From: Prinia subflava | Taxonomy: Eukaryota; Chordata; Aves; Passeriformes; Cisticolidae | Reading direction: 5' to 3' | Assembly (NCBI RefSeq): GCF_021018805.1 | Contig: NW_026960609.1 | Coordinates: 744,001-808,000 of the forward strand | Length of the DNA: 64,000 nt | Shown: positions 7,279-60,396 of the stretch, piece after piece | Position numbering within the stretch: the first letter of the stretch is position 1 | How the letters are laid out: every line of letters starts with the position of its first letter | Made by a program: the position numbers and the translations under genes | Notes under the pieces: generated by a model | Told to the model about the DNA's origin: nothing | What the model saw: only the letters and a program-made list of their open reading frames with translations | Database searches by the model: none

Positions 7279-7597
7279 TGTGGAACTGCATTTTATTGAA
7301 ATGGTATGCTCTGGCTCACCCCTGGAAAGTGTATGGTTTATCCCAAGTCTGTAACCTCCCCTGCAGTATCGTGTGTCTGTAACACCACTGGCCTCTAGAT
7401 CTGTCCGTGCCCACTTTGAATCCCTCTGTTAAGGGTGCAAACAGAGAGGGCGCACTCTCTTTTTGCCCTGGAGGCCTCCAGAGGCTCTGCTCCTCTCCCC
7501 TTCCCTCCCTCTCCCTCCTTCCCCCTCTCTCTCAGTGACCATGCTGCCTTCCTGGGGTCAAACTCCGAATAAATCCTCATCCCATCAGCACCTCACC
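7279..7597 (+). mobile_element. Old solo LTR, left half (split by ERV-1)
   Basis: This segment matches the first three quarters of the solo LTR at 59956-60396. It starts TGTGGAA, contains the phrase GTATGGTTTATCCCAAGTCT, and carries an AATAAA at about 7569-7574. The remainder continues at 14934 after ERV-1. The flanking hexamers TATATT (7273-7278) and TATATG (15044-15049) look like its own slightly diverged target duplication. The unsplit length would be about 429 bp, against 441 bp for the other copy. Confidence 0.85.
7592..7597. repeat. Target site duplication of ERV-1 (CTCACC)
   Basis: CTCACC occurs at 7592-7597 directly before the 5' LTR and again at 14928-14933 directly after the 3' LTR. 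The uninterrupted homologous LTR near 60290 has a single CTCACC here, so the empty site is effectively known. Six bases is the length expected for alpha- and betaretroviral integrases. Confidence 0.92.
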
Positions 7598-7922
7598 TCT
7601 GGGAATACACAAGACAGAGAGTCAAACAGACTTGATTAGCATATCTGGTTTGATAACCAAGATGCCATGGCAGGAACAAACAGAACTGTGAAAATTACAG
7701 GAGATGGGATTACACCTGCTTACGGGAAGAGAGAAGATTCAATCAACTTCTGCAAGCAAAGAGTTGTTGTAAAATGCATGAGTTTTCTGTGTGATTTTTA
7801 ACCTGATTATTGTAGTAGAAATGATTAACCTGTCTGAAATAGTATATAAGCTTTTGGAAAACCTGAGTAAAATCGAATTCTGATCACCGAATCAGTCTTC
7901 CCGTCTCTCATAATCGCCAATA
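7598..7922 (+). mobile_element. ERV-1 5' LTR (325 bp)
   Basis: Direct repeat of 14603-14927 with no difference found by eye. It begins TCTGGGAATA and ends CGCCAATA, so the terminal dinucleotides are TC and TA instead of the usual TG and CA. The boundaries are fixed by the CTCACC target duplication on both outer sides and by the exact 2-nt gap (AT, 7923-7924) to the primer site. It holds a TATATAAG box, but no AATAAA; AGTAAA at 7866-7871 is the best poly(A) signal candidate. Confidence 0.93.
7843..7850 (+). promoter_or_regulatory. ERV-1 LTR TATA box
   Basis: TATATAAG at 7843-7850 lies about 70 bp before the LTR end, the right place for a retroviral core promoter. An AGTAAA at 7866-7871, a variant poly(A) signal, follows within 25 bp, so R would be short. 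The same pair occurs in the 3' LTR near 14848 and 14871. Confidence 0.7.
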
Positions 7923-7924
7923 AT

Positions 7925-7942
7925 TGGTGCCCCGTGTGAGGA
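7925..7942 (+). other. Primer binding site, elongator tRNA-Met
   Basis: TGGTGCCCCGTGTGAGGA is complementary over 18 nt to the 3' end (including CCA) of vertebrate elongator tRNA-Met as I know it. It starts two bases after the LTR. The match is much better than to tRNA-Lys, -Trp or -Phe, which related genera usually employ. Confidence 0.8.
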
Positions 7943-8044
7943 AAAGAACCGGCGGTCTGCTGGCAATTGGCGACGCCCCTGGAACTGATCGTGGCGGTGA
8001 AAGAACCGTGTTTGGGCCTACAATCATCTGTACGCCGGACGTGA

Positions 8045-8053
8045 CAGGTGAGC
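8045..8053 (+). other. ERV-1 major splice donor (CAG|GTGAGC)
   Basis: CAG followed by GTGAGC matches the splice donor consensus. It sits in the leader, 22 bp before the gag start codon, the usual location for the donor that makes env mRNA. A second weaker donor-like site (AAG|GTATGG) overlaps the gag start at about 8067. Confidence 0.65.
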
Positions 8054-8069
8054 CAGGGGAACTCAAGGT

Positions 8070-9812
8070 ATGGGACAGGTCATGTCCGACGGGAGAGACG
8101 TTAAGAAAACCATCCAGCGCTTGCTGAGCAAGCATGGATCCCCCATTCTTAAGCAGGACCTTAAGTCGCTCCTACGATGGGTGTCACGCATGTTCCCCGA
8201 TACCACCCCTTCCTCTGTTCTTACTCTCTGCTACTGGGACAAGGTCGGCGTAAAGCTCTACGACCTGGCTACGCTGCCTGGCCACGAGCCAGAGCTGCGC
8301 CTGCTTCCTGCATGGAGGGCGGTCATGGAAGCGGTTAAAAAAGAGGGGGGGAGCGAGGCAGCCTGCGAGGCTACCGCGGAGACGGCCCCGGAGGCCGTGC
8401 CAGACCGAAACCTGCCCAGGTCCCGCTCCCCGTCCCCCGTCCGCACCCCCTCCCCGACGAACGCCAAAGATAAAGCCCAGCCGCCAGCTGCACCCCCACC
8501 GGGATCCCACCAGCGACCCCAGAGCCGCCGAACGCTAACTGCTTATGGGGACTCTGACTTTAGCAGTGACGGGGAGTCTTTTGATCCCAGCCCCGAAAAT
8601 GATCTGGACTTATTCCCTTCAAATAGGCATAACAACTGGTTAAAGATAAAAAAGAAAGCCCTTAAGGACAGAGACTTTGATACCGCAGCAGAAATATTTG
8701 TAGCCCCTGTGCGTCTCGGCCCGAGGGGGGGGAATCCCCGATGGGAGCCCTTGGGCCACTCAGAAATTAAGGAACTGCGCCGTACCGCAGCAGAATACGG
8801 TCTGGGGTCCCCTTACTTCAGTAATTTGTTGAGAGCAACTTTCAGTACTCACCTCATGACCCCTCATGATGTTAAATCCTTAGCAAACCTTTTGCTCACT
8901 CCAACGCAATATGCGATATTCATGGCACAATGGAAAAGGAGACTGGAGAACTTAATTGTAACATATGCAGGGCAAGCAAACCAAGCCCTGGTTGCCTTAA
9001 CTATTGACCATTTAGCGGGGGAGGGAGCGCATACCGATCCTAATGGCCAAGCTGCCTTGCCGAGGGAAGCCCTGGAAGGGGTCACGGAGGCAGCTCGTTT
9101 TGCATTTCTTAAAGTCCCTGATGCAAAAACCCCGCAACAGTCCTTCATAAATATTAAACAGGCTCCCCAAGAACCCTATATGCAGTTTGTGGACAAATTG
9201 AAACAAGCACTGGAAAGACAGATTGATAACGATCAAGCCAGGGAAGTTGTGCTCCTAAAACTGGCTATTGAAAATGCTAATGATGACTGTAAACGACTCT
9301 TGAAGGCCCTGCCCCCAGAACCTGAGCCCACACTGCTCCAAATGATAGAAGCCTGCAACCGCCTGGGGACATTGCAGCACACTACAGCAGTGACCTATCA
9401 AGCTGTGGGACAAGGCATAGCCGATGCTTTTGCCGCTTTAAAGATAATACCCAAAAAGCAGTCGGTTTGTTTCATCTGTGGGGAGCCCGGGCACATTAAA
9501 AAAGACTGTCGAAAGGCACAAAACCCGAGAACACCGAATATGTGCCCTCGTTGCCAGAAAGGTCCTCACTTTGCTAATTCCTGTCGCTCTAAATTTCACA
9601 AAAATGGCCAGCCGTTGCAGGGAAACTCATCTCACAGCGCGGGATGGCGACGCGTGAAGACACAAGTCCCACAGCCAACCCAGCAGCTGTCACAGCCAGA
9701 GCCAACCTTCAGCTTCCAGCCAGCGCAGGCCCTGCCCGCCGGACCATCTCCGACCTACGTCCAGCAACCCCAGGGAGCGCCGGATTGGACATTTCAACCC
9801 GTGATACAGTAA
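8070..9812 (+). CDS. gag: ERV-1 Gag polyprotein, intact
   Basis: The 580-residue structural polyprotein would assemble the particle and package the genome. It starts MGQ, giving a glycine at position 2 that could be myristoylated. A proline- and serine-rich stretch (about 115-150) separates the matrix part from the capsid. The capsid major homology region is visible at about 363-383 (IKQAPQEPY followed by FVDKL). Two zinc knuckles of the form C-X2-C-X4-H-X4-C lie at about 467-480 and 492-505. The start at 8070 is the first ATG after the leader donor. The C-terminal 60 or so codons overlap the pro frame. There is no clear PPPY or PTAP late motif; a PTYV near the C-terminus is the nearest candidate. 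No internal stop or frameshift is present. Confidence 0.93.
   Translation: MGQVMSDGRDVKKTIQRLLSKHGSPILKQDLKSLLRWVSRMFPDTTPSSVLTLCYWDKVGVKLYDLATLPGHEPELRLLPAWRAVMEAVKKEGGSEAACEATAETAPEAVPDRNLPRSRSPSPVRTPSPTNAKDKAQPPAAPPPGSHQRPQSRRTLTAYGDSDFSSDGESFDPSPENDLDLFPSNRHNNWLKIKKKALKDRDFDTAAEIFVAPVRLGPRGGNPRWEPLGHSEIKELRRTAAEYGLGSPYFSNLLRATFSTHLMTPHDVKSLANLLLTPTQYAIFMAQWKRRLENLIVTYAGQANQALVALTIDHLAGEGAHTDPNGQAALPREALEGVTEAARFAFLKVPDAKTPQQSFINIKQAPQEPYMQFVDKLKQALERQIDNDQAREVVLLKLAIENANDDCKRLLKALPPEPEPTLLQMIEACNRLGTLQHTTAVTYQAVGQGIADAFAALKIIPKKQSVCFICGEPGHIKKDCRKAQNPRTPNMCPRCQKGPHFANSCRSKFHKNGQPLQGNSSHSAGWRRVKTQVPQPTQQLSQPEPTFSFQPAQALPAGPSPTYVQQPQGAPDWTFQPVIQ
9620..9626 (+). promoter_or_regulatory. gag-pro -1 ribosomal frameshift heptamer GGGAAAC
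   Basis: G GGA AAC is set correctly in the gag frame (last base of one codon plus two codons), and the pro frame is -1 relative to gag and open from about 9593 on. The same heptamer is used at gag-pro junctions of known betaretroviruses. Downstream, GCGCG and CGCGT around 9636-9654 could form a stem. Confidence 0.85.
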
Positions 9813-10465
9813 CGTTGACCAATTCCTCAGTGTTTTGTCTCCCCACAGGAATTTACAGACCTTTGCTACCAGGTCACCATGCTTTGCTTTTAGGTAGATC
9901 TTCTACCTCAGTAACAGGATTATTTGTTTTGCCAGGAGTTATTGATTCTGACACGGTTGGGGAAATAAAAATCATGGCTTGGACCCCACAGCCCCCCTGC
10001 GTGGTCCCAGCAGGGACCAAAATAGCCCAGCTTGTACCTTTTCCAGCAGCCCCCTTATCCACACCCCCGATAGCTAATCAGAGGGGAGGCGGGTTTGGTT
10101 CAACAGGGGTACCACAAATTTTTTGGACCCAGCGCATAACTCCTGAACGTCCTACGTGCAGGTGTAAGGTGTCTCTGAGAGGTAAAGAGTTAATTTTAAC
10201 CGGATTGATTGACACGGGCGCGGATATCAGTCTTATCTCCCAAAATCAATGGCCTAATGATTGGCCATTAATGCCTGTCCCCCAGGTCCTCTCAGGGGTG
10301 GGTGGAAACAGTCAAAGCTATCAAAGCCAACACCTGGTACAGATCACAGGGCCTGAAGGCAGGGTAGCAACTGTCAGGCCTTATGTGTTGTCTGCGCCGC
10401 TGATTTTATGGGGGAGAGATGTTTTGTCTCAATGGGGAATTTTCATGCAGTCAAATTTTGTATAA
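9620..10465 (+). CDS. pro: ERV-1 Pro: dUTPase plus retroviral protease, intact
   Basis: The frame is made by a -1 shift out of gag. Its first half is a dUTPase, which hydrolyses dUTP and limits uracil in viral DNA: the phrases PGSAGLD, RSS and RGGGFGSTG (the C-terminal glycine-rich motif) are in the expected order. The second half is a retropepsin-type aspartic protease with the active-site phrase LIDTGAD (about 10205-10225) and a later GRDVLSQWG segment. dUTPase joined to the N-terminal side of protease in its own frame is typical of betaretroviruses. An ATG occurs at 9644 but is unlikely to be the natural start. The frame closes at 10463-10465, overlapping pol by about 50 bases. Confidence 0.92.
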   Translation, partial: GKLISQRGMATREDTSPTANPAAVTARANLQLPASAGPARRTISDLRPATPGSAGLDISTRDTVTLTNSSVFCLPTGIYRPLLPGHHALLLGRSSTSVTGLFVLPGVIDSDTVGEIKIMAWTPQPPCVVPAGTKIAQLVPFPAAPLSTPPIANQRGGGFGSTGVPQIFWTQRITPERPTCRCKVSLRGKELILTGLIDTGADISLISQNQWPNDWPLMPVPQVLSGVGGNSQSYQSQHLVQITGPEGRVATVRPYVLSAPLILWGRDVLSQWGIFMQSNFV

Positions 10466-13128
10466 GGGTCATTTGGGCGCGCGAGACCCCCAAACTGACT
10501 TGGAAATCCTCTGATCCAGTTTGGGTAGACCAATGGCCCATGTCATTAGAAAAACTGCGCATTTTACAAGAACTTGTAAAGGTACAGCTGGAAAAGGGAC
10601 ACATAGTCCCATCTAATAGCCCTTGGAATTCACCGGTGTTTGTAATCAAAAAGCGGTCTGGGGGGTGGAGGCTATTGCATGACTTGAGGAAAATAAACGA
10701 GGTAATTGAGGGAATGGGGCCCCTACAGCCAGGCCTCCCTTCCCCTTCTATGATTCCTAGAAATTGGCATTTAACAGTAATTGATTTAAAGGATTGTTTT
10801 TTTGACATTCCTCTGCATCGAGATGATGCACCCAAATTTAGCTTTTCTGTGCCGAGCATTAATATGCAGGCACCTCTAAATCGATATCATTGGTTATCAC
10901 TTCCCCAAGGAATGCGAAATAGCCCAATTTTGTGTCAGTGGTACGTGGCAAAAACCCTGAGCCCGATACGGGAACAAATGCCTGATGTTCTCTTTTATCA
11001 TTATATGGATGACATTCTTATTTCTGCAGAAACCGTGGGTCATATGGAGGAAGCAGTGCAGGCTGTCTGCCAAGCTGTTACCTCAGCAGGCCTCACCATT
11101 GCTTCTGAAAAGGTTCAAAAGACATCTCCCTGGAAATATTTGGGCTGGCGAATAAGCATGCATTCTATTTCTGCACAACCCTTGCAAATCTCAACTGAAA
11201 TCAAAACTTTACATGATGCACAGAAGTTGCTAGGAACAATAAATTGGGTCCGTCCCTTGCTTGGGATTTCAAATGCAGATTTAGAGCCATTGTTTGCCCT
11301 CCTGGGAGGAGAGCCTAACCTCTTATCACCCAGACACTTAAACAAAGAAGCACAAATTGCGCTTCAAAAAGTAGCTGATGCTATCTCTCAAAGGCAATCA
11401 GCTAGGTGGGCTCCAGAGTTGCCTTTGTGGCTAATTATTCTGAATCCTAATAAACAGCCTTATGCATTAATATTTCAGTGGGACTCAGAAAAACCAGATC
11501 CTCTTCTAATTATCGAATGGGTCTTTTTGCCTAACAATATGCCCAAGACTATTTCCATGCAAGATGAACTTATGGCCATGTTGATTGTCAAGGCTCGCCA
11601 AAGACTGACCTCTTTGGCTGGGAAAGATTTTGATATTATCTATCTACCTCTCACAATGTTTTATTTGAATTGGTTGCTACAGATGTCTGAAAAATTGCAA
11701 ATTGCTTTAACAAATTACCCAGGGCAGATATCTATCCATCCGCCTAAACACAAATTATTAAGTTCGTCTTTTAATTTAATCCCCAAGCCAAAGAGAAGTG
11801 AGACTCCCTTGCAAGCTATGACAATATTCACAGATGGGTCTGGGAAAACCCGTAAATCAGTGATTGTATGGAGGGACCCTGAAACTGGAACTTGGCAATC
11901 TGATATTGCTGTGGTTGAAGGGTCTCCACAAATAGTGGAATTAGCTGCTGTTGTCAGAGTGTTTCAGAAATTCAGCACACCTTTTAATCTGATTACTGAC
12001 TCCGCATATGTTTCAGGTATTGTACAGAGAGCAGAGAATTCTGTTTTGAAAAATGTTAAAAATTACATTCTTTTTTCCTGGTTAAAACTGCTGGTCTCTC
12101 TGTTAGACCAGAGGACGGCTCCTTACTTTGTGATGCATATCAGGTCACATTCCAATCTACCGGGTTTTCTCACTGAAGGTAATGCCCAAGCAGACTTGTT
12201 AACCTTATCAGTGCAGCATGTTTTGCCTAACAAAATAGAGCAAGCTAAACTGAGTCACTCCTTTTTTCACCAAAATGCTGGGGCTTTGGTAAGACTTTTT
12301 AAATTAACTCCAGCACAAGCCTCTAATATCATTTCTATATGCCCTGACTGTCAGCGTTGCACACTTCCTAATGTGAACACAGGGGTCAACCCAAGAGGTC
12401 TACAGAGCCTACAAATTTGGCAGACAGATGTGACACACATTCCTGAATTCGGCCGCTTGAAATTCGTGCATGCTTCTATTGATACCTTTTCAGGTGCTCT
12501 GTTTGCCTCAGCTCACACGGGAGAGACAGGGAAAGACGTTTGCCGTCATTTCGCTGCTGCCTTTGCCACCTTAGGAATTCCGCAACAGATTAAGACAGAT
12601 AATGGACCCGCATATATTTCCCGTAGAGTTGCAAACTTCTTCTCATTATGGGGTATCACCCACAAAAGGGGCATAGCTCACTCACCCACAGGACAATCAA
12701 TTATAGAACGAGCCCATTGCTCTCTCAAACGTCTTCTGTTACAACAAAAAGGGGGAGCCGAGGATACTCCTGCGGAAAGATTATGCAAAGCCTTGTATGT
12801 CTTTAATTTCTTGAATTGTTCAATGACAGACTTAAATCCCCCTATGACTAGGCATTTTACATCATCCACATCGCTTTCCTGCAAAGAGAAACCACCAGTA
12901 CTAATCCGTGACCCAGAATCTGGTAAAATCCTTGGCCCTTACCCTTTGATCACCTGGGGAAGGGGCTATGCTTGTATCTCCTCAGAAAAAGGACCCCGCT
13001 GGATTCCGGCAAAAAACGTGAAGCCGTTCCGAGAACCTCTACCGACAGCTGACGGAGGCCAAGACGCCACCGCCACCGAGCCCCCGAGAGAGGAGGAGGA
13101 GGAGGAACCCCACTCAGACTGCAGTTGA
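10408..13128 (+). CDS. pol: ERV-1 Pol: reverse transcriptase, RNase H, integrase, intact
   Basis: The open frame is 906 codons if counted from the ATG at 10408, but translation should enter at the slip site 10453-10459. Reverse transcriptase: DLKD at about residues 126-129, LPQG at 165-168 and the catalytic YMDD at 199-202. RNase H: TDGS, a central Glu, TDSAYV and HIRSHS followed by GNAQAD. Integrase: an H..H..CPDC zinc segment, then catalytic Asp at about 674, Asp at about 731 and Glu at about 767, giving 35 residues between the last two (DD35E). The C-terminus ends in a glutamate-rich tail. No stop or frameshift interrupts the frame, and all catalytic residues I looked for are present. Confidence 0.93.
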   Translation: MGERCFVSMGNFHAVKFCIRVIWARETPKLTWKSSDPVWVDQWPMSLEKLRILQELVKVQLEKGHIVPSNSPWNSPVFVIKKRSGGWRLLHDLRKINEVIEGMGPLQPGLPSPSMIPRNWHLTVIDLKDCFFDIPLHRDDAPKFSFSVPSINMQAPLNRYHWLSLPQGMRNSPILCQWYVAKTLSPIREQMPDVLFYHYMDDILISAETVGHMEEAVQAVCQAVTSAGLTIASEKVQKTSPWKYLGWRISMHSISAQPLQISTEIKTLHDAQKLLGTINWVRPLLGISNADLEPLFALLGGEPNLLSPRHLNKEAQIALQKVADAISQRQSARWAPELPLWLIILNPNKQPYALIFQWDSEKPDPLLIIEWVFLPNNMPKTISMQDELMAMLIVKARQRLTSLAGKDFDIIYLPLTMFYLNWLLQMSEKLQIALTNYPGQISIHPPKHKLLSSSFNLIPKPKRSETPLQAMTIFTDGSGKTRKSVIVWRDPETGTWQSDIAVVEGSPQIVELAAVVRVFQKFSTPFNLITDSAYVSGIVQRAENSVLKNVKNYILFSWLKLLVSLLDQRTAPYFVMHIRSHSNLPGFLTEGNAQADLLTLSVQHVLPNKIEQAKLSHSFFHQNAGALVRLFKLTPAQASNIISICPDCQRCTLPNVNTGVNPRGLQSLQIWQTDVTHIPEFGRLKFVHASIDTFSGALFASAHTGETGKDVCRHFAAAFATLGIPQQIKTDNGPAYISRRVANFFSLWGITHKRGIAHSPTGQSIIERAHCSLKRLLLQQKGGAEDTPAERLCKALYVFNFLNCSMTDLNPPMTRHFTSSTSLSCKEKPPVLIRDPESGKILGPYPLITWGRGYACISSEKGPRWIPAKNVKPFREPLPTADGGQDATATEPPREEEEEEPHSDCS
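10453..10459 (+). promoter_or_regulatory. pro-pol -1 ribosomal frameshift heptamer AAATTTT
   Basis: A AAT TTT is in the pro frame just before its stop at 10463. A -1 slip leads directly into the pol frame. This heptamer is the kind used at betaretroviral pro-pol junctions. Confidence 0.85.
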
Positions 13129-13339
13129 TGACATCCTTTGTTCTATCGAGAAAGGAAACTGTGAACTTTTGGGTTTGATGTCTGTGTGAAGGGTGTGGGA
13201 ATTGGTGATATCACAGAGCCCTTTTTGGCAAAAGCGTAATGTAAAACAGGTATAAATCCATTGAATTTTTTGTTATAACTGACCACCAAAAAGGTAGGCC
13301 TTGAACGAGGACCAAAAGGAGATAAGCTAAAAAAGGTTT

Positions 13340-13375
13340 TGTTTTCTTTTTTTTTTTCCTTTTACCACAACATAG
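13340..13375 (+). other. ERV-1 env splice acceptor region
   Basis: A long T-rich tract (13338-13361) is followed by CATAG ending at 13375, 26 bases before the env start codon. With the leader donor at 8047/8048 it would give a subgenomic env mRNA. Confidence 0.6.
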
Positions 13376-13400
13376 TTCTAAACAAACAAACAAAGGCACC

Positions 13401-14696
13401 ATGGAGTTAAATCGAATGCTATACTTGTTAGCATTGCTTGCCTTTTGTAGCACAGCCTGGCCTATTAATCAACCCAAAACAAATGTTTGGATAACTCTGG
13501 CTAATGCAACCAAACAAGATACCTTATGCCTGGCCACTGCATCCCCAGAAAATCCATTTTCAACCTGTTTAGTCGGTTTGCCATTAGATGGCTGGCCAAT
13601 ACCAGAAATTACCAAAAGCATAGTACAGAGCTCAAATCCTGTTGATACATGGGATCAGTGGACTCCTTACCTTCCAATAACACCCTTGGAGCCACAAGAA
13701 TTAGAACTCCTGGGTTCTGTAAAAATGGATTTTTGTGCTAATTTTGATTACACAGGAAAAAACCAGTCAAAAGCCTGGGATGTTTCTCCCTATCACCCTG
13801 CATATAAAAATCAGACCTCTTGGTGCAATTACACTTCTGGCAGCCCTTCTAAATCCAGTAATGCCCCACTGTGGCTGCCATCAGGAATGTTTCTGATTTG
13901 TGGGGATCGGGCCTGGGCTGCTATCCCTTCACACATAAAGGGAGGTCCCTGTAGTTTGGGACGACTGACTGTGCTAACACCTAACATGTCCATGATTTTA
14001 CAGCACAAGTATCCCCACAGAATAAGGCGCACTCTGCATGCATTTGATGAATACTGCGATGATGAATTGTCTTTGTGGTCTGAGACCCAGATGAATTTGG
14101 CTTCTTCGCTTTTGCCAGGAATGGCTGCAAAAAAGGCCTTAAGTCAATTAAATAAGGTAGCCTGCTGGCTGGCAAAGCAGACAAATGCCACCAGCTCAGC
14201 TTTATCAAATTTATTAACAGATGTTGACAGTATAAGACATGCTACCCTTCAAAACCGTGCAGCCATTGACTTCATCCTCCTTGCTCAGGGCCATGGATGT
14301 GAAGATTTCGATGGAATGTGTTGTATGAATCTTTCTGATCACTCAGAATCTATCCATAAAAGCATTCAGCAGCTAAAAGATAGTGTATTTAAATTAAAGG
14401 TAGAATCTGGATCTTGGCTAGATAACTTGTTTAGTGGCTGGGGTTTGACACCCTGGCTAAAAGATTTTCTTAGGATAGGAATGCATGTAATGATTTTAAT
14501 AATAATTGTATTCGTTATGATACCTTGCTTGCTTCAATGTGTGCAGAGATTAGTTAATAAAGCCATCAAGGGGGTATTCTTGGTTAATACAGAAGGGGGA
14601 GATCTGGGAATACACAAGACAGAGAGTCAAACAGACTTGATTAGCATATCTGGTTTGATAACCAAGATGCCATGGCAGGAACAAACAGAACTGTGA
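13401..14696 (+). CDS. env: ERV-1 Env glycoprotein, intact, alpharetrovirus-type TM
   Basis: The 431-residue envelope precursor starts in a strong context (GCACCATGG). A hydrophobic signal peptide covers about residues 6-20. SU is short, about 190 residues, with N-glycosylation sequons such as NAT, NQS, NQT, NYT and NMS. A furin-type site RIRR is at 207-210. In TM, cysteines at 219 and 255 bracket a moderately hydrophobic stretch, as in the internal fusion loop of alpharetroviruses. C-X6-CC is at 300-308 and a membrane anchor at about 361-379. The last 31 codons lie inside the 3' LTR, so the stop codon is in U3. The polypurine tract is also coding. The combination with betaretroviral pol points to recombination or an intermediate lineage. 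The frame shows no damage. Confidence 0.92.
   Translation: MELNRMLYLLALLAFCSTAWPINQPKTNVWITLANATKQDTLCLATASPENPFSTCLVGLPLDGWPIPEITKSIVQSSNPVDTWDQWTPYLPITPLEPQELELLGSVKMDFCANFDYTGKNQSKAWDVSPYHPAYKNQTSWCNYTSGSPSKSSNAPLWLPSGMFLICGDRAWAAIPSHIKGGPCSLGRLTVLTPNMSMILQHKYPHRIRRTLHAFDEYCDDELSLWSETQMNLASSLLPGMAAKKALSQLNKVACWLAKQTNATSSALSNLLTDVDSIRHATLQNRAAIDFILLAQGHGCEDFDGMCCMNLSDHSESIHKSIQQLKDSVFKLKVESGSWLDNLFSGWGLTPWLKDFLRIGMHVMILIIIVFVMIPCLLQCVQRLVNKAIKGVFLVNTEGGDLGIHKTESQTDLISISGLITKMPWQEQTEL
14591..14602 (+). other. ERV-1 polypurine tract
   Basis: AGAAGGGGGAGA directly precedes the 3' LTR and would prime plus-strand synthesis. It lies within the env reading frame. Confidence 0.85.
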
Positions 14697-14927
14697 AAAT
14701 TACAGGAGATGGGATTACACCTGCTTACGGGAAGAGAGAAGATTCAATCAACTTCTGCAAGCAAAGAGTTGTTGTAAAATGCATGAGTTTTCTGTGTGAT
14801 TTTTAACCTGATTATTGTAGTAGAAATGATTAACCTGTCTGAAATAGTATATAAGCTTTTGGAAAACCTGAGTAAAATCGAATTCTGATCACCGAATCAG
14901 TCTTCCCGTCTCTCATAATCGCCAATA
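14603..14927 (+). mobile_element. ERV-1 3' LTR (325 bp)
   Basis: Second copy of the 325-bp LTR, apparently identical to 7598-7922. It begins directly after the polypurine tract and is followed by the CTCACC target duplication. Its first 94 bases encode the Env C-terminus and stop codon. Confidence 0.93.
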
Positions 14928-14933
14928 CTCACC

Positions 14934-22312: not shown

Positions 22313-22318
22313 ATTCAT

Positions 22319-22650
22319 TGTTATGATTTTCGGATAGCACAGAAATAACAACATGACTCTCCATGATGGTAAAGATGAGAGCAAACTTTATTCTTCTAAA
22401 TTCTACTTTTATAGAGTAGTTCGGTACAAAGAACATGATTGGTTATTCAGCATCTACACCCTTTTGTAAACATTTCTTTCCAGTAAACATGTTGGAAAAA
22501 CACCACCTGCAGATAGTTTCTCACTTCCCAAGGTTTGTTTGAATTCCTCCTTTAGCTTTTTCAGGCTAACATGAGAAAGTTGCTCACTTGCCTTTCACAC
22601 AGACACTGGCAGAGCCTGAAGCCTAAATTCAGACCAATGTCAGGCCCACA
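22319..22650 (-). mobile_element. ERV-4 3' LTR (332 bp)
   Basis: On the minus strand it starts TGTGGGCCTGAC at 22650 and ends with CA at 22319. The complement of TATAAA is at 22408-22413 and of AATAAA at 22387-22392, so promoter and poly(A) signal are about 20 bp apart. Confidence 0.88.
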
Positions 22651-22662
22651 TCTCCCCCTTTT
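22651..22662 (-). other. ERV-4 polypurine tract
   Basis: On the minus strand AAAAGGGGGAGA directly precedes the LTR start TGTGGG. It is the standard plus-strand primer position. Confidence 0.8.
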
Positions 22663-23086
22663 AGTTTTTGCTGAGGGCGGAGTCTGTGTCTGTGTCCTCT
22701 CCTGCAGGGCCCTTGCAAGAGAAAAAAAGACAAACATGACACCAGAAGTCTCATTAGTAATCAAACAATCACTAAATAGAACTTCCATTGGGCACCAACT
22801 TAAATGGTCAGGGAAGTTCTCTGGAATTCAGTGTTGACCCTTCACAACCATGTCCATGCACCAGTGTCAAGCCTAGCTACTTACTAATTCTAATACAGAA
22901 AAAATAAAACATCATTAGTCTGCTCAAAAATGGCAGTCTAATTCACCAAGATCCATCACTCTAGAAGTCATCCTTTCAGATAACAAGGGCTTTTCCTGCC
23001 TTTTAGCAAAGGACTGTGGTCCTTGCATCACACCTGCAACAACAAACTGGTTTATTTTTCCAATTATTTGGAAAACCTGTGTTGGG

Positions 23087-23087
<1 letters not shown>

Positions 23088-23116
<29 letters not shown>
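23088..23116 (-). repeat. Homopolymer: 29 T (poly-A on the minus strand)
   Basis: A run of 29 T lies in the 3' part of ERV-4. On the minus strand it is poly(A), which could mark a retroposed transcript caught in the element, or may simply be slippage. Confidence 0.95.
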
Positions 23117-23119
<3 letters not shown>

Positions 23120-24839
23120 GCAAAAATGCATGTGATCTTTGAAGGGGCAGAGACCCATTGCAGGATATGCAGGATTGGACCATCGTTCACTCACTTGGCC
23201 CATGATACCTGTAGAATGTGACCTAGAAAAAAAAGGAATAATAAGAATGATAAAATTAATAAAATATCAATAAAAAGATAACTGACTCAAAAAAAAATCT
23301 ACATGATCCCAATCACCACAAAGACAAAAACCACAAAGTGAAACAACAGCCCTTAATAACTACAAAACATACACTGAAGGCACATGAAATATTACCTAAA
23401 ATACAACTTCATCTATGTAGGAAAATTAAATGAAACAACATCTACTACAAAATTAAAACAAATTAAAAGGAAAGGGTCCATTGAGCCAAGATGTTGATCC
23501 TTGGTATCACTGGATGTCTTCTTGAAGTCTGAAGCAGGGAGTGACATGAAGATCGATGAAAACAGGATCATGCTGCTGACACAAGACTTTTGTTGTCTCC
23601 ATAACTTCCAATCACATGGTCATCTTTGCAGTCTATGTGATAGCCAGAAAGGCTATACAGTGTCCCTTTTCAGTCCTCAAAGGTGATGGGTAACACAACT
23701 GCTGAACCTGCTAATGATAAAACACAGGCACATCCTTTCCTTAAGTTAACAAACTTGTCAGGCTCCACTGCCCTAAACTGACAACTTGTCAGACTCCATT
23801 GTCTAAATTCAACATCCAGGTTTCAGAATTATTTTTTCTTCAGGTTCATAACATAAATGTTACATTGTTGCAAGTTATCTTTTTGATAATTATTTTCATC
23901 AGCCCAGGAACTGCAAAAGCTGAAGTGCTTCTTTTCCAGTGATAACCTGTTCATCCTTCCCAGGCAGGAATTCCAGGTTGACCGCAAAGATCAATTCAGC
24001 TATTATATTTAAAGGTCAAATTGCTGAGTCAAATAACTCATATGTAATTTCTTGCTGAAACATCTGGGCAAACAGGCAATTCCCATCCAGAGAGAGCCAA
24101 GGCATGGCCAGTGCCCAGCTCTACTTGCAGAGGAATCCCTTACACCAATTTTAAGCCAATATTCTTAAAAATGTTATGATAAAAACTATAATAATAATTG
24201 ACACCTCCTAAATTTGTCAGGGTAGAGATGCTCTGAGCTCAGCAGGCTCTTGAGATGGTCTGCGACCAGGATTGGAACTGCATCCCAAACCGTCAGGACA
24301 GAGGAGGCATTCTTACAAACTCGGATAACCTTGTCTGGAAATCTGAAAATATTTAGAAAATCATGAATGCAAAACTAGCATAGACAGCTAGAAAACAAGG
24401 AAAAATTCTTGGGTGACACGTGTCTCTTACAGGCAATTATAGACAAATAGCAAAGTACCTGAGAAGAAGAAGCAGCAGCAGCAGCAGCAGTCGGCTATAG
24501 AACTGTGATAATAACTATCATATCAGTGAATTCCCATTATATAATCAATATATCATCAACAAATATCTTAAAAACTGAGATAACACTTACAACTCATAAC
24601 TGATAGTTATAATATAGAATTGTTAATAATACTTGTGTTATCTGCAAAAGGCAACAAAGGCTGCTCATTTGTTTTTTGTTTTTCTTTTCATTTTCCTTCT
24701 ATTATGAACAGGCATTTAAAGCTTCAATTCTATTCACTGGAGACGCCTTGAGAAAAAAATTTTTGAGGGAGGGTGGGAGGGAAAAACCCCCCAAAAAAAT
24801 CAACTGTCCCTCTAAAAGGAAAAGCTTCCACTTGGCTCA

Positions 24840-25760
24840 AAGGTGGCGGAGCTATTTGGCCCTGCCCTGAGTAGGGCTTTGGGGGCTTCAGGGGCCCCAT
24901 GGCCCCCCTGCATGGCTGCAGCTCCATGGAGGACAGGGAAATCCAAACAGACATGGCCCCCATTTCTCTGTAAAAAAACCCTATACCTTAAATTTCAAGC
25001 AAAGCACCTCCCACAGCATAATAAGCTGTCTAGAAGCGGCAAACGCTGCCTCATGCCCTATTCGCAATGCCGCTCGGCGTGCAGGGAAGGAGGGGGGAAG
25101 CGAACCCCGCCGCTCACGGCGGGGGGAAGGGGGAAAAGGAGGGAGGAGATGGCCCCGGCTGTTCCTATGACGGCTTCCTGCGCAAATTCACGTGGGAAGG
25201 AAATGAAAACAGTGGCAGCTGTCACGAAGTGTGTGCTTGTGGGGCAGGGGCCGCTGCCCCTGTTCTCATCACCACTGCACATGGCAGGGGAAACGGAGAA
25301 GGAGCAACTGGGCAGGCTCGGCCCGCCCCTGCCGCTGGCCCGCTGCTGCCTCTTTCGAGCAGAGAGCCGGCAGCCCCCCTTCACCGCCCTGGGGGGAAGG
25401 GGGGGAATGAAGCGGCAAAGCCGCCCCAAGCTGCACGTCTCAGTGGCACCGCGCAGGGAAAGGAAGGGACCCGCGCGCCCCCATGGTGTGGGGAGGGGGG
25501 GAAAACCAAGTACGGAAAAAGCGAGAGAGATCACAGCCACTGCCGTGCTGGAGGGGTCTCCCCTCTCCCACTGTGCCAGCGAAACCACGGGGGTGGGGAG
25601 AGAACTGCACGCAGGGAAAACAGAAAATGGGGGGGAGGGGTCCGATCCCGTCCCACCACCACAGGGAGAAAGATGGGGCTGAGTATGGCAAGAGACAGAG
25701 AGAAAGAAGGCAGAAAGATCGAATCGCTGCTGCCATGGCCTCTGTCTCACCACACCCCCT
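24840..25760. other. G+C-rich block inside ERV-4
   Basis: About 900 bp with many CpG and long G runs, in sharp contrast to the AT-rich surroundings. Open frames on both strands here are an effect of the composition. It could be a captured host CpG island or an element-specific leader; no splice or coding evidence decides this. Confidence 0.55.
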
Positions 25761-26541
25761 ACCCCCGCAAAGGGGAAAAAACAAAGTTAAAACACAGAAG
25801 ACAAAGAAAGACAAGCTCTACACTCACACAGGCAATCATAAAAACAAGCACAGGTAAAGTTAAAAAGATAAAACACTCCTAAGATGAACTTTTCGCCCTA
25901 AACTCACACAAGGATACAGAGGGGATTAAAAGTTTCGATCCTGGTCCCCACCACAGGCCAGATGCTGGGCCATGCAGATGAAGAAAGGATTGTTGTGTCA
26001 CACTCAGGGTCCAGGAATCCGACCAGCTGTATCTGGGACGGGCTGGCATCTTTTAAAGTCACAGTACAGATCAGTCGCAGTGGCTCATAAAGCAGGAACC
26101 ACTGCACAGCCATCCGTGATAAGAAGAAAGGAGAATGAAAAAGCCAAGGAAGTGCCGTCTGTGCTGGCCAGGAGAGGTGGCGGTGCAGACACTCACTTTG
26201 ATCTTGCCCAGATAGAAGCAGAAGAGGTCGGGGGAGCAAAAGAAGCTGTCAGCAGCGAAGGATACCAGCTGCTTTTGTCAGGAAAGGCACAAGCTGTCCT
26301 CTCTCAGGAAAGGCTGGTTCCCCAGGTTTTTCTGGAACCTCTGCCTGGCTGTCTGTTGTGGAAATCAAAGTCCAGCTTTGCCAGGTGCCGTCTGACCTGC
26401 TGTTTTTTGGCAGGATTGATCTTTTTCCATGGTCAGCAGGACCAGCCTTCTTTAGAAAAACGTGGAGATATTTCTCTTACCTCATGTAGTAAGTTTTCAA
26501 GCTTTGCTACATGAATCAGTCTCAGATGTGCTGAGCTTCTT

Positions 26542-26559
26542 TGAAACGTCAGGTCACCA
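26542..26559 (-). other. ERV-4 primer binding site, tRNA-Trp-like
   Basis: On the minus strand TGGTGACC followed by TGACGT begins two bases after the LTR end. It resembles the tRNA-Trp primer site of alpharetroviruses with a small deletion, so the assignment is tentative. Confidence 0.6.
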
Positions 26560-26561
26560 GA

Positions 26562-26899
26562 TGTTCTTATGATTTTCGGACAGCACAGAAATAACAACAT
26601 GACTCTCCATGATGGTAAAGATGAGAGCAAACTTTATTCTTCTAAATTCTACTTTTATAGAGTAGTTCGGTACAAAGAACATGATTGGTTATTCAGCATC
26701 TACACCCTTTTGTAAACATTTCTTTTGCCAGTAGACATGTTGGAAAAAACACCACCCGCGGATGGTTTCTCACTTCCCAAGTTTTGTTTGAATTCCTCCT
26801 TAAGATTTCTCAGGCTAACATGAGAAAGTTGCTTGCTTGCCTTTCACACAGACACTGGCAGAGCCTGAAGCCTAAATTCAGACCAATGTCAGCCCCACA
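26562..26899 (-). mobile_element. ERV-4 5' LTR (338 bp)
   Basis: Right-hand copy of the LTR. It starts TGTGGGGCTGAC at 26899 on the minus strand and ends AAGAACA at 26562. It differs from the left copy by scattered substitutions and small indels, for example around 26726-26730 and 26800-26811. Confidence 0.88.
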
Positions 26900-49595: not shown

Positions 49596-49601
49596 AGTCA
49601 T
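49596..49601. repeat. Target site duplication of ERV-3 (AGTCAT)
   Basis: AGTCAT lies at 49596-49601 and again at 53884-53889, immediately outside the two ends of ERV-3. The right-hand copy belongs to the tail of a CR1 element, so the provirus inserted next to or into that tail. Confidence 0.9.
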
Positions 49602-49715
49602 TGCCGTCCACCACATTGGTGTCAGCGTGTCAGTGGCCCGAGTAGCTCGAGGACGTCGAGCTGCCGTGCTGACTCTTTGAAACCAGGTCGCCATTGCCTC
49701 ATATCGAAGGCAACA
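49602..49715 (+). mobile_element. ERV-3 5' LTR, R-U5 only (114 bp)
   Basis: Direct repeat of 53770-53883 with no difference found. It begins TGCCGTCC directly after the target duplication and ends GGCAACA. The U3 part present in the 3' LTR is missing entirely. The first bases correspond to a point a few nucleotides inside the presumed R. Confidence 0.92.
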
Positions 49716-49718
49716 TTC

Positions 49719-49738
49719 TGGTGCCGAAAGCCCGGGAA
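49719..49738 (+). other. ERV-3 primer binding site, tRNA-Phe-like
   Basis: TGGTGCCGAAA then G and CCCGGGA match tRNA-Phe complementarity except for one extra G. It starts three bases after the LTR. Confidence 0.65.
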
Positions 49739-49849
49739 CAAGAAAAACGCTCGGGAGTCGGGATTTTTCGCCTGGACAGGAGCAGCGGCCGGGGCAGGCC
49801 AAAGGAACTGACCCTCGGCGGGGGAGACGTCCCCGGACCAGCGAGACTC

Positions 49850-51013
49850 ATGGAGGCAATCGCGAAGGTCGTAAGTGTAATTCACAGACAGTGGGAGATT
49901 GAGTGCAAGCCCAGAGATTTACAACTTGCTTTGGCAAGATTACTGGAGCTTGGGGTGATAGAGCGCCCAGTAGAAATCCTCCATTCGGAGGTATGGGGGA
50001 GGTGTACACTCGCGCTGGCCGAAGATACGGAATCCACAGGGAGCGGGAAACACCTTAAAGCATGGGGGAGGGTCAAGCAAAGTTTACGGAAAGCGCTGGA
50101 AGAACAAGAGACCTGGAGTGCCGCCCGTGTGTGTTTGCTGGCCACTCCTAAGCTGGGAGTGGGGGCCACCACGCAAACGGCGTCTGAAAATGATTTATCC
50201 GAGTGCGAGAAGCCGCGGGAGCCAAGCACGCTTCCCCCCTCCCGGAGCCCGAGCCCAAAGCCCCCGGTGCCCTCAGGGAACCCCCCGACCCCCACCCCGA
50301 GCCCGTCGGCTTCCCCCCCGCCCGCGGAGCCTTCCCGGGCATCCGGAGGTCCCTCCTCAGTCCCCTTGCCGTCGATCGGTAGTTCGGTACCCGAGGCGCG
50401 GCAGCGCGTGCGATTTTTCTGGCAAGGACTGGCCGAAGAGGCCAGAGACGCCGAGCACGTGGCTCAGGAGAGCACGCGGCCGGCACCGCCACCGTACGGG
50501 TTTGAAAATGGCGCCGGCGGCAGCGGGGAGGGGCGGGGTCTGAACGTTTGTGGTGGGGAGAGCCCGGAGCCGTGGGTGTGCGCCAGTGCGCATGCGCAGG
50601 GGAAAGCCGGGGAAGAGGGAGAGGAATGCGTGCTCAGACAAGAGCCGCGGGCTTCTGCTGGCGCGTGCGCGCAGCAGGAGGGGAGGGGGTGCATGTTCGG
50701 AGCGGCGCCGCGAGTCCCCGCGGGCGCGTGCACACGGGAGAGCGGCGGGGAAAGTGCGCCCGGCCCGGCGCCGTGGGCTTCCGCGGGCGCGTGCGCGCCG
50801 GGAGGCGGTGGGGAAAGCACGTTCGGGGAGGCGCCGCGGAGAGCGCCCGCGTGGTTCGGAGCCGTGGTTTTCCGCAGACCCGCATGCACGGGACAGCGGC
50901 GAGGAGCGCGTGCGCGCCTCGGGGCCGCGGTTTCCCGCAGGCACGCACGTGTGGGAGGGGCGCGAGGAGCACGTGTCCCGTCGGGAGCTGCGTTCAGCAC
51001 TGCCAGCATTTAG
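49850..51013 (+). CDS. gag: ERV-3 truncated Gag: matrix and late-domain region
   Basis: The frame from 49850 gives 387 residues. The first 110 or so form a compact domain starting MEAIAKVV, with an arrangement I associate with the alpharetroviral matrix. A proline-rich linker follows (about 128-165), then a PPPY late motif (50486-50497, residues 213-216). After that the frame enters G+C-rich tandem repeats rich in Ala, Gly and Arg and ends at 51013. No capsid or zinc knuckle is present. An ATG at 49694 is in the same frame but lies in the LTR. Only the first two thirds are likely derived from Gag. Such a product could bind membrane but not assemble a particle. Confidence 0.75.
   Translation: MEAIAKVVSVIHRQWEIECKPRDLQLALARLLELGVIERPVEILHSEVWGRCTLALAEDTESTGSGKHLKAWGRVKQSLRKALEEQETWSAARVCLLATPKLGVGATTQTASENDLSECEKPREPSTLPPSRSPSPKPPVPSGNPPTPTPSPSASPPPAEPSRASGGPSSVPLPSIGSSVPEARQRVRFFWQGLAEEARDAEHVAQESTRPAPPPYGFENGAGGSGEGRGLNVCGGESPEPWVCASAHAQGKAGEEGEECVLRQEPRASAGACAQQEGRGCMFGAAPRVPAGACTRESGGESAPGPAPWASAGACAPGGGGESTFGEAPRRAPAWFGAVVFRRPACTGQRRGARARLGAAVSRRHARVGGARGARVPSGAAFSTASI
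49868..49876 (+). other. ERV-3 splice donor seven codons into gag
   Basis: GTC|GTAAGT has the six intronic consensus bases at 49871-49876. It falls after exactly seven gag codons. Alpharetroviruses also place the env donor a few codons into gag, so that env uses the gag start. Confidence 0.65.
50567..51000 (+). repeat. 63-bp minisatellite between gag and env
   Basis: Units recognisable by a (G)AGCCG/GCGCCG motif start at 50642, 50705, 50768 and 50831, then at 50859, 50922 and 50985, each series with a spacing of exactly 63 bp. A first, longer unit (75 bp) starts at 50567, and a 28-bp step separates the two series. The sequence is rich in CpG and in GCGCGTGCGC-like runs. Since 63 is a multiple of three, each series keeps frame, and no forward frame meets many stops. 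Confidence 0.85.
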
Positions 51014-51052
51014 GGGAGAGACCTCGCCCCACAGGAGGCAGGGCAAGCTCGG

Positions 51053-51160
51053 GGGGCGGGAGCGGAGCCACCCCCGAGAGGGGGGGCGGGAGTGGAGCCA
51101 CCCCCGAGAGGAGGGGCGGGGCCGGAGCCACCCCCGAGAGGAGGGGCGGGGCCGGAGCCG
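51053..51160 (+). repeat. 30-bp tandem repeat, about 3.6 copies
   Basis: Units start with GGGGCGGG at 51053, 51083, 51113 and 51143, each followed by GGAGCCACCCCCGAGAGG or a near variant. In the frame of the env ORF it encodes a ten-residue repeat around SHPREEGRGR. Confidence 0.9.
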
Positions 51161-51305
51161 CACTGAACGACACTCAAACCCAGAAGTGAGCTGGCAGTGT
51201 GTCTCTGACTCCTTGTCAGACAGTACCGGCGGCAGCAGCTCCGGAGAGCAGACAGAGAGTGATTGGGATTCAGAAACAAAGAGAGCAGAACCAACACGAT
51301 TTAAA

Positions 51306-53117
51306 ATGAAACTTAATAAAGCTTTCAGCCACTTCAAAAAGAGTTTACAACATGAGCCAGCCCAGGTCACTGACTGGGGAAAAATAAAAATAGCCTGTGC
51401 TGAGTGGACACCGGCTTCCACAGTGAAAGCATTCCCAGTAAGGGTTACTAGAATAGAGGACAACCAACAAAAAATATACACGCCAGTAAATCCCAAAGAC
51501 ATACAAACAATTGTAAAAGCGATTCCAGAGAAAAGGAACAAACCGAGAGCACCCAAGTGTCCCACGCCAGTGAGACCCAGGCAACAACGATGCTTTTGTA
51601 TGATTTTGCTATTGGGGCTGGTTGCCAGAATGCAAGCCAGCCCAGACTATTATCCTCATCAACCATTCAGGTGGGTCATGAAACACCTTTCAAATGACAA
51701 GGTGCTCAAAGAAATCACCACACCGGGCACCCCATCCTTTGTGTTCCACATCACCGATCTGTTCCCGGGGCGACCAAAGATAGACCGCCACGCCCCACAC
51801 CTCATGCACATGTACATGGCCTACTGGTGCCCAGCCTCCAACCCAGGGAAAAGGTACTGCAACTACCCGGGGTGGGGCCACTGTGGTTACTGGGGCTGTG
51901 AAACCATTGTTACAGATGCCAGACCATCAGGATATGGGTGGGACCCACAGGAACCCGATAAATTCTTACAGTTCTCCTGGGCACCCACCGGCTGTAACAA
52001 ACCCTTCTTCAGGTCAGGGTTCTATCGAAACTATTATCAGGACCCTACACGCCGGACATGCACTGATTATAACATGACTGTTTTACAACCAGATCACCCT
52101 AGCTGGGCCACAGGCAGGACGTGGATAGTAGTCCTCCAGTCACCAAAAGAATGGGTGAATGTACAGATTATCAGACTCCAGCCGCCAGTGCCTCGGGCGG
52201 TCGGACCCAAAGAAATTATTAGAGACTCACAAAAAAGGAAAAGCACAATCCACCCCAAATCTTTGCCCACAAAAGTCACCAATACCCCGACCAGCTATGC
52301 AGATGCCTTTCAGATAGACCACTTAGCCGTGTCTGACCCGAATCCCATTTTCCGCATGCTAGAAGCTACCTTTTCATCTCTGAATGAATCCAACCCAAAC
52401 CTAACCAATCCATGCTGGCTCTGTTACGATGTTAAACCTCCTTTCTATGAAGGAGTTGCTCTAAACATCCCATTCAGTTACTCCACAGCTGATGTCCCCC
52501 ACCAGTGCAGGTGGGACACTCCCCGCAGAGGAATCACCTTGAGTCAAGTCACGGGTCAGGGAAAATGCTTTGGCAGTGCAACTTTAGCCAAGCAGAAGGG
52601 AAATGTTTGCACCGAAGTTGTCAAACCTGACAAGAAGATCAATAAGTGGGTGATCCCAGCTGCATCCGGAATGTGGGTTTGTCAACGGTCTGGGGTGAGT
52701 CCTTGTGTGTCCCTGGCCAAATTCAATAACTCTGATGATTTTTGTATCCAAGTTCTGATTGTTCCTAGGGTCTTGTACCGCTCAGACGAGGAGGTGTGTC
52801 AACTTTCCGAGGAACCGGGCCGGCTCCACAAGCGAGAGATAATAACGGGTAACCATCGCGATGCTGCTCGGCCTGGGAGCAGCCGGTACAGCCACAGGTG
52901 TCTCAGCCCTCGTGACCCAACACCAAGGACTTTCTCAACTACAAGTGACTATCGACGAGGACTTGCAGAGGATCGAGAAATCCATCTCCTTCCTGGAGAA
53001 ATCGGTTTCCTCACTTTCAGAAGTCGTCCTGCAGAACAGGCGGGGACTGGACCTCCTGTTCATGCAACAAGGAGGCCTGTGTGCCGCCTTGAAAGAAGAA
53101 TGTTGCTTTTATGCTGA
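51306..53117 (+). CDS. env: ERV-3 Env SU, gammaretrovirus-like, frame lost before TM
   Basis: The open frame continues upstream to 50550 through the tandem repeats (855 codons in all). Plausible starts are the ATG at 51306 with a long leader, or at 51600 next to the hydrophobic signal [16 protein letters not shown] has many cysteines, an NPCWLC motif near 52408 (the CXXC of gamma-type SU) and a furin-type site KRE at about 52830. Shortly after the cleavage site the frame goes out of register with TM, so codons from about 52845 to 53117 are not Env. The SU itself shows no other damage. Confidence 0.82.
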
Positions 53118-53391
53118 TCATACAGGAGTCGTTAGAGACTCCATGGCAGAACTCCGAGATAGACTGGCTCAGAGAAAGAAAGACAGGGAAGCCCAACAGG
53201 GCTGGTTCGAGTCCTGGTTCAATCAATCGCCATGGCTCACCACCCTAATTTCCACATTGATAGGTCCATTGGCAATGTTATTCGTAGCTCTCGCCATTGG
53301 ACCATGCCTGTTAAACAAGCTAGTCACATTTATTCAAACACGCCTAGAACGGGCCAACATTCTATTTGTAGGACAGCAACAATTGTTGTAA
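52846..53391 (+). CDS. env: ERV-3 Env TM in a different frame
   Basis: TM is open in the frame that begins after a stop at 52843-52845. It has a fusion-peptide-like segment [12 protein letters not shown], a heptad-rich region, the conserved [11 protein letters not shown] segment, C-X6-CC (CAALKEECC), a membrane anchor ([19 protein letters not shown]) and a short tail ending at 53391. Everything from the fusion peptide on is intact. A small indel near 52843-52861 is the simplest reason for the separation from SU; alternatively an ATG at 52861 exists, but it would give no signal peptide. Confidence 0.85.
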
Positions 53392-53542
53392 ACCAAACTG
53401 TGAACACTGCCAGTTGCAAAGTTCTGCCTAGTCAGCCTCGCAGAATTTACTCAAGTTTTCCAAACCCCTTCTTTTTTTTTTATCAAGTTACTACCTTGTA
53501 CCCCTTTTCTCCAATGCCTCTAACTACCTCATTTTTTTTGTG

Positions 53543-53558
53543 AAAAGGGGGGGGGAGA
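53543..53558 (+). other. ERV-3 polypurine tract
   Basis: AAAAGGGGGGGGGAGA immediately precedes TGTGTGGG, the start of the 3' LTR. Confidence 0.88.
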
Positions 53559-59955: not shown

Positions 59956-60396
59956 AGTGGAATTGCATTTTATTTAAATGGTGTGCTCTGTCTCAATCCT
60001 CAAAAGTGTATGGTTTATCCCAAGTCTGTAACCTCCCCTGCAGTATCGTGTATCTGTAATCCCATTGGCCCGAGAATCAATCTGCACCCACTTTGAATCT
60101 CCCTGTTAAAAGTGCAGAGGGAGGCAGCTCGTCCTCTTGCTCCGGAGGCCCCTGGAGGCTCTGCCCCTCTCCCCTTCCCGCTCTCCTTCCCTCTCCCCCT
60201 CCTTCCCCCCTCTCCCTCAGTAACCATGCTGCCTTCCTGGGGTCAGACTCCAAATAAATCCTCATCTAATCAGCACCTCACCAGCTGTCTGAAGTCTCCT
60301 TGCCTGTCTGCATGCAAATACCAGTGAACATAGGGCCTGGGGGCCCCCCGGGGACCCCCCCCCCGGGGACCACCCCCCCAAATCTGCACTACAACA
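59956..60396 (+). mobile_element. Solo LTR (441 bp), same family as the split LTR at 7.3 kb
   Basis: GCAGCT at 59950-59955 and 60397-60402 is a perfect 6-bp target duplication. The element starts (A)GTGGAATTGC, where the first base seems mutated from T, and ends CTACAACA. AATAAA lies at about 60253-60258. A G/C-rich inverted stretch at about 60336-60380 could form a strong hairpin. It serves as the intact reference for the copy interrupted by ERV-1. Confidence 0.88.

What the first reader, a model, noticed from the sequence alone, without database searches (positions are those of the whole stretch)
7598..14927. A complete, apparently undamaged and very young provirus
The sequence shows two 325-bp LTRs without a difference that I can find, a perfect target duplication, an intact primer site and polypurine tract, and open gag, pro, pol and env with all catalytic motifs. 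Identical LTRs at insertion diverge with time, so this is recent and may be polymorphic or even competent.
Basis: partly seen in the sequence, partly recalled or inferred. Interest (0 to 1): 0.9.

Follow-up and report, generated by a model that had tools for sequence, protein, structure and literature searches.

The report
Young chimeric bird retrovirus, odd ends
A recently inserted, apparently unbroken endogenous retrovirus in what looks like a bird genome joins a beta-like body to an envelope of the chicken-leukosis type and has DNA ends that differ from the textbook retroviral ends, which makes it a natural case for studying retroviral integration and envelope swapping.

Summary
Observation confirmed: LTRs 7598-7922 and 14603-14927 match 325/325, CTCACC abuts both outer ends, and gag, pro, pol and env are open. 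"Very young" is loosely bounded: 0/325 differences allows up to about 1.4-3.1 My at recalled bird rates. Polymorphism and competence are untested.

Added by the tools: (1) It belongs to a large young family: 40 of 717 LTR candidates were scored, all 99-100% alike, in a 1.12-Gb genome. (2) All 40 begin TC and end TA, not TG...CA; of 20 insertions with both flanks, 18 have 6-bp and 2 have 5-bp duplications. (3) It is chimeric: beta-like gag-pro-pol with the avian gamma-type env of alpharetroviruses; an older ERV in the window has the same pairing. (4) Of 14 other proviruses read at both ends, none keeps gag and env both open, which suggests spread in trans.

Deviant songbird LTR ends are already in print (PMC6523648), so this is a new variant of a known kind. 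Genome-wide env/pol counts, the primer tRNA and a possible W-chromosome location were not tested: the genome search stopped answering.

The parts
7592..7597 (.). left copy of the target-site duplication, CTCACC
7598..7922 (+). 5' LTR, 325 bp, ends TC...TA; TATATAA at 7843, AGTAAA (possible poly-A signal) at 7866
7925..7942 (+). primer binding site, two bases after the LTR; fits the 3' end of elongator tRNA-Met (tRNA recalled, not tested)
8070..9812 (+). gag, 580 aa: Gag_p10, p24 N and C domains, two zinc knuckles
9620..9626 (+). slippery heptamer GGGAAAC, gag/pro -1 shift (function inferred)
9593..10465 (+). pro frame (first ATG at 9644): dUTPase and aspartic protease, no G-patch found
10453..10459 (+). 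slippery heptamer AAATTTT, pro/pol -1 shift (function inferred)
10357..13128 (+). pol frame (first ATG at 10408): RT, RNase H, integrase
13401..14696 (+). env, 431 aa, avian gamma-type; last about 30 residues lie in the 3' LTR
14019..14030 (+). RIRR, likely SU/TM cleavage site
14055..14165 (+). fusion loop between two cysteines (residues 219 and 255), first cysteine 9 residues after the cleavage site
14298..14324 (+). CX6CC motif of TM
14591..14602 (+). polypurine tract, directly before the 3' LTR
14603..14927 (+). 3' LTR, identical to the 5' LTR
14928..14933 (.). right copy of the target-site duplication, CTCACC
7280..7597 (+). left part of the older repeat that was hit; its right part begins at 14928
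59957..60396 (+). uninterrupted relative of that older repeat, single CTCACC

Best explanation
A recently integrated, structurally complete endogenous retrovirus of an avian class II (beta-like, 'alpha-beta') lineage. Shown: identical LTRs, target duplication, open gag/pro/pol/env in a -1/-1 layout, dUTPase in pro, an env of the avian gamma-type, and membership in a family of many near-identical copies whose integrated ends are TC...TA. Inferred: its RNA is primed, probably by tRNA-Met, reverse transcribed, and its integrase joins ends that carry TA (U5) and GA (U3) where retroviruses have CA, across a 6-bp and sometimes 5-bp stagger. Inferred: copies that lost parts of gag or env spread with proteins from fuller copies.
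For: Anatomy. Body nearer beta than alpha in each gene compared: integrase 242 bits to 7usf against 146 to 7jn3 and 122.5 to 1c0m, named RSV integrase; Gag 85.6 bits to 6ssj, named ERV group K Gag, against 57.6 to 2x8q, named RSV capsid; protease 60 bits to 3sqf against 41.5 to 2rsp, named RSV protease. Env: Avian_gp85 and TLV_coat in Pfam, ASLV TM best in the PDB at 86.5 bits, CX6CC, cysteine-flanked internal loop, no CXXC. Family and ends: 40 of 40 LTRs TC...TA, 18 of 20 insertions with 6-bp and 2 of 20 with 5-bp duplications. Defective copies.
Against: No expression, particle or integrase activity was tested. The primer tRNA is recalled. Spread in trans is inferred from which pieces are missing. 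Only 40 of 717 LTR candidates were scored.
Confidence: 0.82

Rival explanations
1. The provirus is older, and its LTRs were made identical by gene conversion or by assembly.
For: Seven of the 40 LTR copies, its own two included, are identical, so a conversion donor is at hand.
Against: Ten of 15 LTR pairs show no difference and all 15 pairs together show 7 mismatches; four open frames would also have had to survive.
Confidence: 0.1
2. The copies on contigs C36-C40 arose by segmental duplication, not by new integrations.
For: 9 of 25 insertions lie on C36-C40, 2.85% of the assembly.
Against: Of the 9, the 7 with both flanks in hand have their own, different duplications; the other 2 were seen at one end only.
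Confidence: 0.05
3. The integrase follows the usual two-ended CA rule, and the extra terminal bases come from something else, for example unprocessed U3 ends as in foamy viruses (recalled) or reverse transcription that starts and stops at odd places.
For: A CA lies a few bases inside each end. The purine tract abuts the first LTR base, so trimming at U3 cannot be counted. A U3 end without CA can integrate in RSV experiments (PMC12789967 passages).
Against: The same TC and TA ends stand directly inside the duplications of 20 of 20 insertions, and U5 has lost exactly the two bases before the primer site.
Confidence: 0.3

Closest known systems
Avian 'alpha-beta' beta-like intermediate ERVs (chicken GGERVAB; PMC1224870, passages)
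   Same: -1/-1 frame layout, dUTPase in pro, no G-patch.
   Different: Their env type and LTR ends were not stated in the passages that I saw; no tree was made here.
TgERV-F (songbird ERV; known from PMC10536682 passages; its own paper not held)
   Same: Avian class II body with an env from another branch.
   Different: TgERV-F has a mammalian gamma-type env; this one has the avian gamma-type.
Alpharetroviruses (ASLV)
   Same: Env type: cysteine-flanked internal fusion loop, CX6CC, no CXXC.
   Different: gag and pro in different frames, dUTPase present, body nearer to beta; SU much shorter (ASLV length recalled).
Type D betaretroviruses (MPMV)
   Same: Class II body with a covalent-type env acquired from elsewhere (PMC3758190 passages).
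   Different: MPMV env is gamma-type with an N-terminal fusion peptide; here the avian variant.
Songbird LTRs with ends other than TG...CA, and UcyLTR-Lurtz with 5- and 6-bp duplications (PMC6523648, passages)
   Same: Deviant ends; mixed duplication lengths.
   Different: There noted during repeat curation; their table was not seen, so this very family could be among them. Here tied to a complete provirus.
IAP/IAPE of rodents (PMC3758190 passages)
   Same: Class II family with env-bearing and env-lacking lines.
   Different: Here a shared gag deletion is also common.

Membership tests
Orthoretroviral provirus | paired LTRs, target duplication, primer site, purine tract, gag-pro-pol-env | tested here: met
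Orthoretroviral provirus | LTR ends TG...CA (PMC12789967 passages) | tested here: not met
   TC...TA in 40 of 40 LTRs scored
Genus Betaretrovirus | gag, pro and pol in three frames, -1/-1 | tested here: met
Genus Betaretrovirus | dUTPase N-terminal in pro | tested here: met
Genus Betaretrovirus | G-patch at the end of pro (mammalian betaretroviruses; some lack it, PMC1224870) | tested here: not met
   no Pfam hit, no motif match
Genus Betaretrovirus | tRNA-Lys primer (recalled) | tested here: inconclusive
   The site fits elongator tRNA-Met by recall; genome searches for the tRNA did not complete
Genus Betaretrovirus | RT tree position | not tested
   no named references at hand; only pairwise PDB scores
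Avian alpha-beta intermediate ERVs (PMC1224870) | -1/-1 layout, dUTPase in pro (often), no G-patch | tested here: met
Avian alpha-beta intermediate ERVs (PMC1224870) | Pol tree position between alpha and beta | not tested
   no references at hand
Avian gamma-type Env (PMC3758190) | CX6CC in TM | tested here: met
Avian gamma-type Env (PMC3758190) | internal fusion peptide about 9 residues after the cleavage site, flanked by cysteines | tested here: met
   sequence only; the disulfide itself is not testable here
Avian gamma-type Env (PMC9967133) | no CXXC in SU | tested here: met
Genus Alpharetrovirus | gag and pro in one frame, 0/-1 (PMC1224870 passages) | tested here: not met
Replication-competent virus | produces infectious particles | not testable with these tools

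The most novel reading that the evidence does not exclude
A recently active vertebrate retrovirus whose integrase normally uses ends without CA on both LTRs (GA at U3, TA at U5), in an avian beta-like lineage that carries the alpharetroviral type of envelope and whose gag-intact members sit mainly on the female-limited chromosome (3 of the 4 gag-open copies seen are on C36-C40, counting this one; that these contigs are W is untested).
Probability: 0.3. Interest if true: 0.7.

Novelty: new variant of a known kind. Interest (0 to 1): 0.48.

Why it matters
TG...CA ends are given as general for retroviruses (PMC12789967 passages), and changes in CA abolish 3'-processing by HIV-1 integrase in vitro (PMC2615046 passages). 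A natural family with other ends, many young insertions and an open integrase gene makes the basis of end recognition directly testable. [quoted passage not shown] The mix of gag-deleted and env-deleted copies shows a family moving from virus towards transposon.

Tried and rejected
Rejected: that the true LTR is TGGGAA...CCA with host bases outside. TC and ATA are constant in 40 of 40 LTRs with differing flanks, and the duplications start directly outside them. Rejected: that the short SU is a truncation peculiar to this copy. The env of the older ERV aligns with residues 25-411 at 33% over 425 columns. Rejected in part: that odd ends are general in this window. The elements 22318-26899 and 49601-53883 read TG at the start of the 5' LTR and CA at the end of the 3' LTR, with 6-bp duplications, once the aligned block is shifted by one base; the 3' LTR of the first begins TC. 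The older minus-strand ERV reads TG...CA in the one LTR checked, without a duplication check.

Led nowhere: scans of viral contigs with env and with pol found no relative. The protein database was switched off. Rfam and tRNA scans of the window gave nothing. Two papers were not held. Ten paper searches were answered; statements on what is in print rest on these and on passages, not whole texts; supplements were not seen. Left open because the genome search did not complete: env and pol counts in the genome, the tRNA behind the primer site, whether C36-C40 and C53 are sex chromosomes. An earlier count said 9 LTR pairs without difference; one search shows 10 of 15, used here.

Full report
What is there. 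The window is G000:C40:744001-808000 of an assembly of 1,119,828,203 bases in 537 contigs. The size and an envelope type described as specific to birds (PMC3758190 passages) point to a bird; the species was not identified. The finding's coordinates are right. LTRs 7598-7922 and 14603-14927 are identical over 325 bases and the likeness stops sharply. CTCACC abuts both outer ends. The provirus split an older repeat; a relative of that repeat stands uninterrupted at 59957-60396 with a single CTCACC.

Genes. gag (580 aa), pro (273 aa from its first ATG), pol (906 aa) and env (431 aa) are open. pro lies in the -1 frame of gag and pol in the -1 frame of pro, with GGGAAAC and AAATTTT in the right register. 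pro holds dUTPase and protease and no G-patch was found. Catalytic motifs are present. Four late-domain patterns are absent from gag; what that means is unknown. env ends inside the 3' LTR, so about its last 30 residues are LTR-encoded.

Affinities of the body. By sequence search of solved structures: RT-RNase H best to 7sr6, 476 bits; integrase 242 bits to 7usf, 146 to 7jn3 and 122.5 to 1c0m, named RSV integrase; Gag 142 bits to 8c9m, 85.6 to 6ssj (named ERV group K Gag) and 57.6 to 2x8q (named RSV capsid); protease 60 bits to 3sqf and 41.5 to 2rsp (named RSV protease), dUTPase 83 bits to 2d4l. That 7sr6 and 8c9m are HERV-K, 7usf MMTV, 7jn3 RSV, 3sqf and 2d4l MPMV is recalled; the listings do not say so. 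Gag, protease and integrase each score higher against beta-type than alpha-type chains; no alpharetroviral RT was among the 60 rows shown of 326. These are scores, not a tree. The layout, dUTPase and missing G-patch fit the avian alpha-beta ERVs of PMC1224870 (passages).

Affinity of the envelope. Pfam gives TLV_coat and Avian_gp85. The best solved relative is the ASLV TM at 86.5 bits, then syncytin-2 at 52 and filovirus GP2 at 46 and less. CX6CC, a loop between cysteines beginning nine residues after RIRR, and no CXXC are the marks of the avian gamma-type as given in PMC3758190 and PMC9967133 (passages). [quoted passage not shown]

An older relative. The minus-strand ERV at about 35.7-44.2 kb has gag, RT, RNase H and integrase pieces and an Avian_gp85 env piece. 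Its env aligns with ours at 33% over residues 25-411, its pol at 54% and 35% in two blocks, its gag at 35% and 31%. So the pairing of body and envelope is not peculiar to this copy, and the short SU is shared.

The ends. All 40 LTRs read begin TCTGGGAA and end CCAATA. Of 20 insertions with both outer flanks in hand (15 two-LTR proviruses and 5 solo LTRs) 18 have a 6-bp and 2 a 5-bp duplication directly outside these ends. The other 5 of the 40 LTRs had no partner in the set. Reviews give TG...CA as the rule; a U3 end without CA can integrate in RSV experiments (PMC12789967 passages). Boman and others report that several LTRs of an estrildid finch deviate from TG...CA and that one has both 5- and 6-bp duplications (PMC6523648 passages). 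The deviation as such is therefore in print, and this family may be in their table, which I did not see. Two bases lie between the U5 end and the primer site, so U5 loses two; at U3 the purine tract abuts the first base, so trimming there cannot be counted. Two other LTR elements in the window show TG...CA at their outer ends.

The family. One search scored 40 of 717 candidates, each 99-100% alike. Seven of 40 equal this LTR exactly, its own two included. Ten of 15 LTR pairs show no difference, and there are 7 mismatches in all. Zero of 325 gives a median age of 0.3-0.7 My and a 95% upper bound of 1.4-3.1 My at recalled rates. Of 17 other 3' pieces 5 keep the whole env and 12 have lost part; 7 of the 12 share one pair of breakpoints with about 270 bases of other sequence between. 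Of the 5 whole envs 3 are open to the same stop, one of these without the start codon, and 2 are broken. Of 16 other 5' pieces 3 keep gag open to its stop, 9 share one gag deletion, and 4 are broken otherwise. Of the 14 other proviruses read at both ends none keeps gag and env both open; their middles were not read in full. In the gag-deleted line the gag remnants differ from this copy by 3-25%, while its first pol piece is 98.9-100% alike and its LTRs 99-100%; later pol pieces of the 17 range from 96.4 to 100%, with one short segment at 92.2%. I read this as mobilisation in trans with template switching; that is inference.

Where the copies lie. 9 of 25 insertions are on C36-C40, 2.85% of the assembly; without the query copy 8 of 24, binomial p about 2e-7. 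Of 8 insertions with 325-bp LTRs 7 lie there and 1 on C53; of 17 with 326-bp LTRs 2 lie there (Fisher p 0.0005). The set was chosen by likeness to this 325-bp LTR and is not a census. [quoted passage not shown] this was not tested.

Verdict. Youth is supported within wide limits; competence is open. More interesting are the TC...TA ends, the chimera and the complementary defective copies.

Noticed in passing
49601-53883, + strand: Second young LTR element: LTRs identical over a block of 115 bases, duplication AGTCAT, G+C-rich, no pol found among the ORFs scanned, an 857-aa frame with TLV_coat (env).
   Followed up: partly
about 35.7-44.2 kb, - strand: Older broken ERV with a beta-like body and an Avian_gp85 env, the same pairing as the finding.
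   Followed up: partly
22318-26899: Another LTR pair, 320 of 333 identical, duplication ATTCAT after a one-base shift; no family hit for the two ORFs scanned in it.
   Followed up: partly
L056 about 806-1080; same spacing in six other 3' pieces: About 270 bases of other sequence between the shared env-less breakpoints; by eye in L056 it resembles an RNase H piece of another class II pol, not tested.
   Followed up: no
LTR copies in the genome: 325- and 326-bp LTR types, differing by one base near LTR position 314, are unevenly spread over contigs.
   Followed up: partly
primer sites of the 15 two-LTR copies: The primer site varies: 7 of 15 copies as here, 8 of 15 with one or two changes.
   Followed up: no
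20-503: GGAA tandem array of 484 bases at the start of the window.
   Followed up: no
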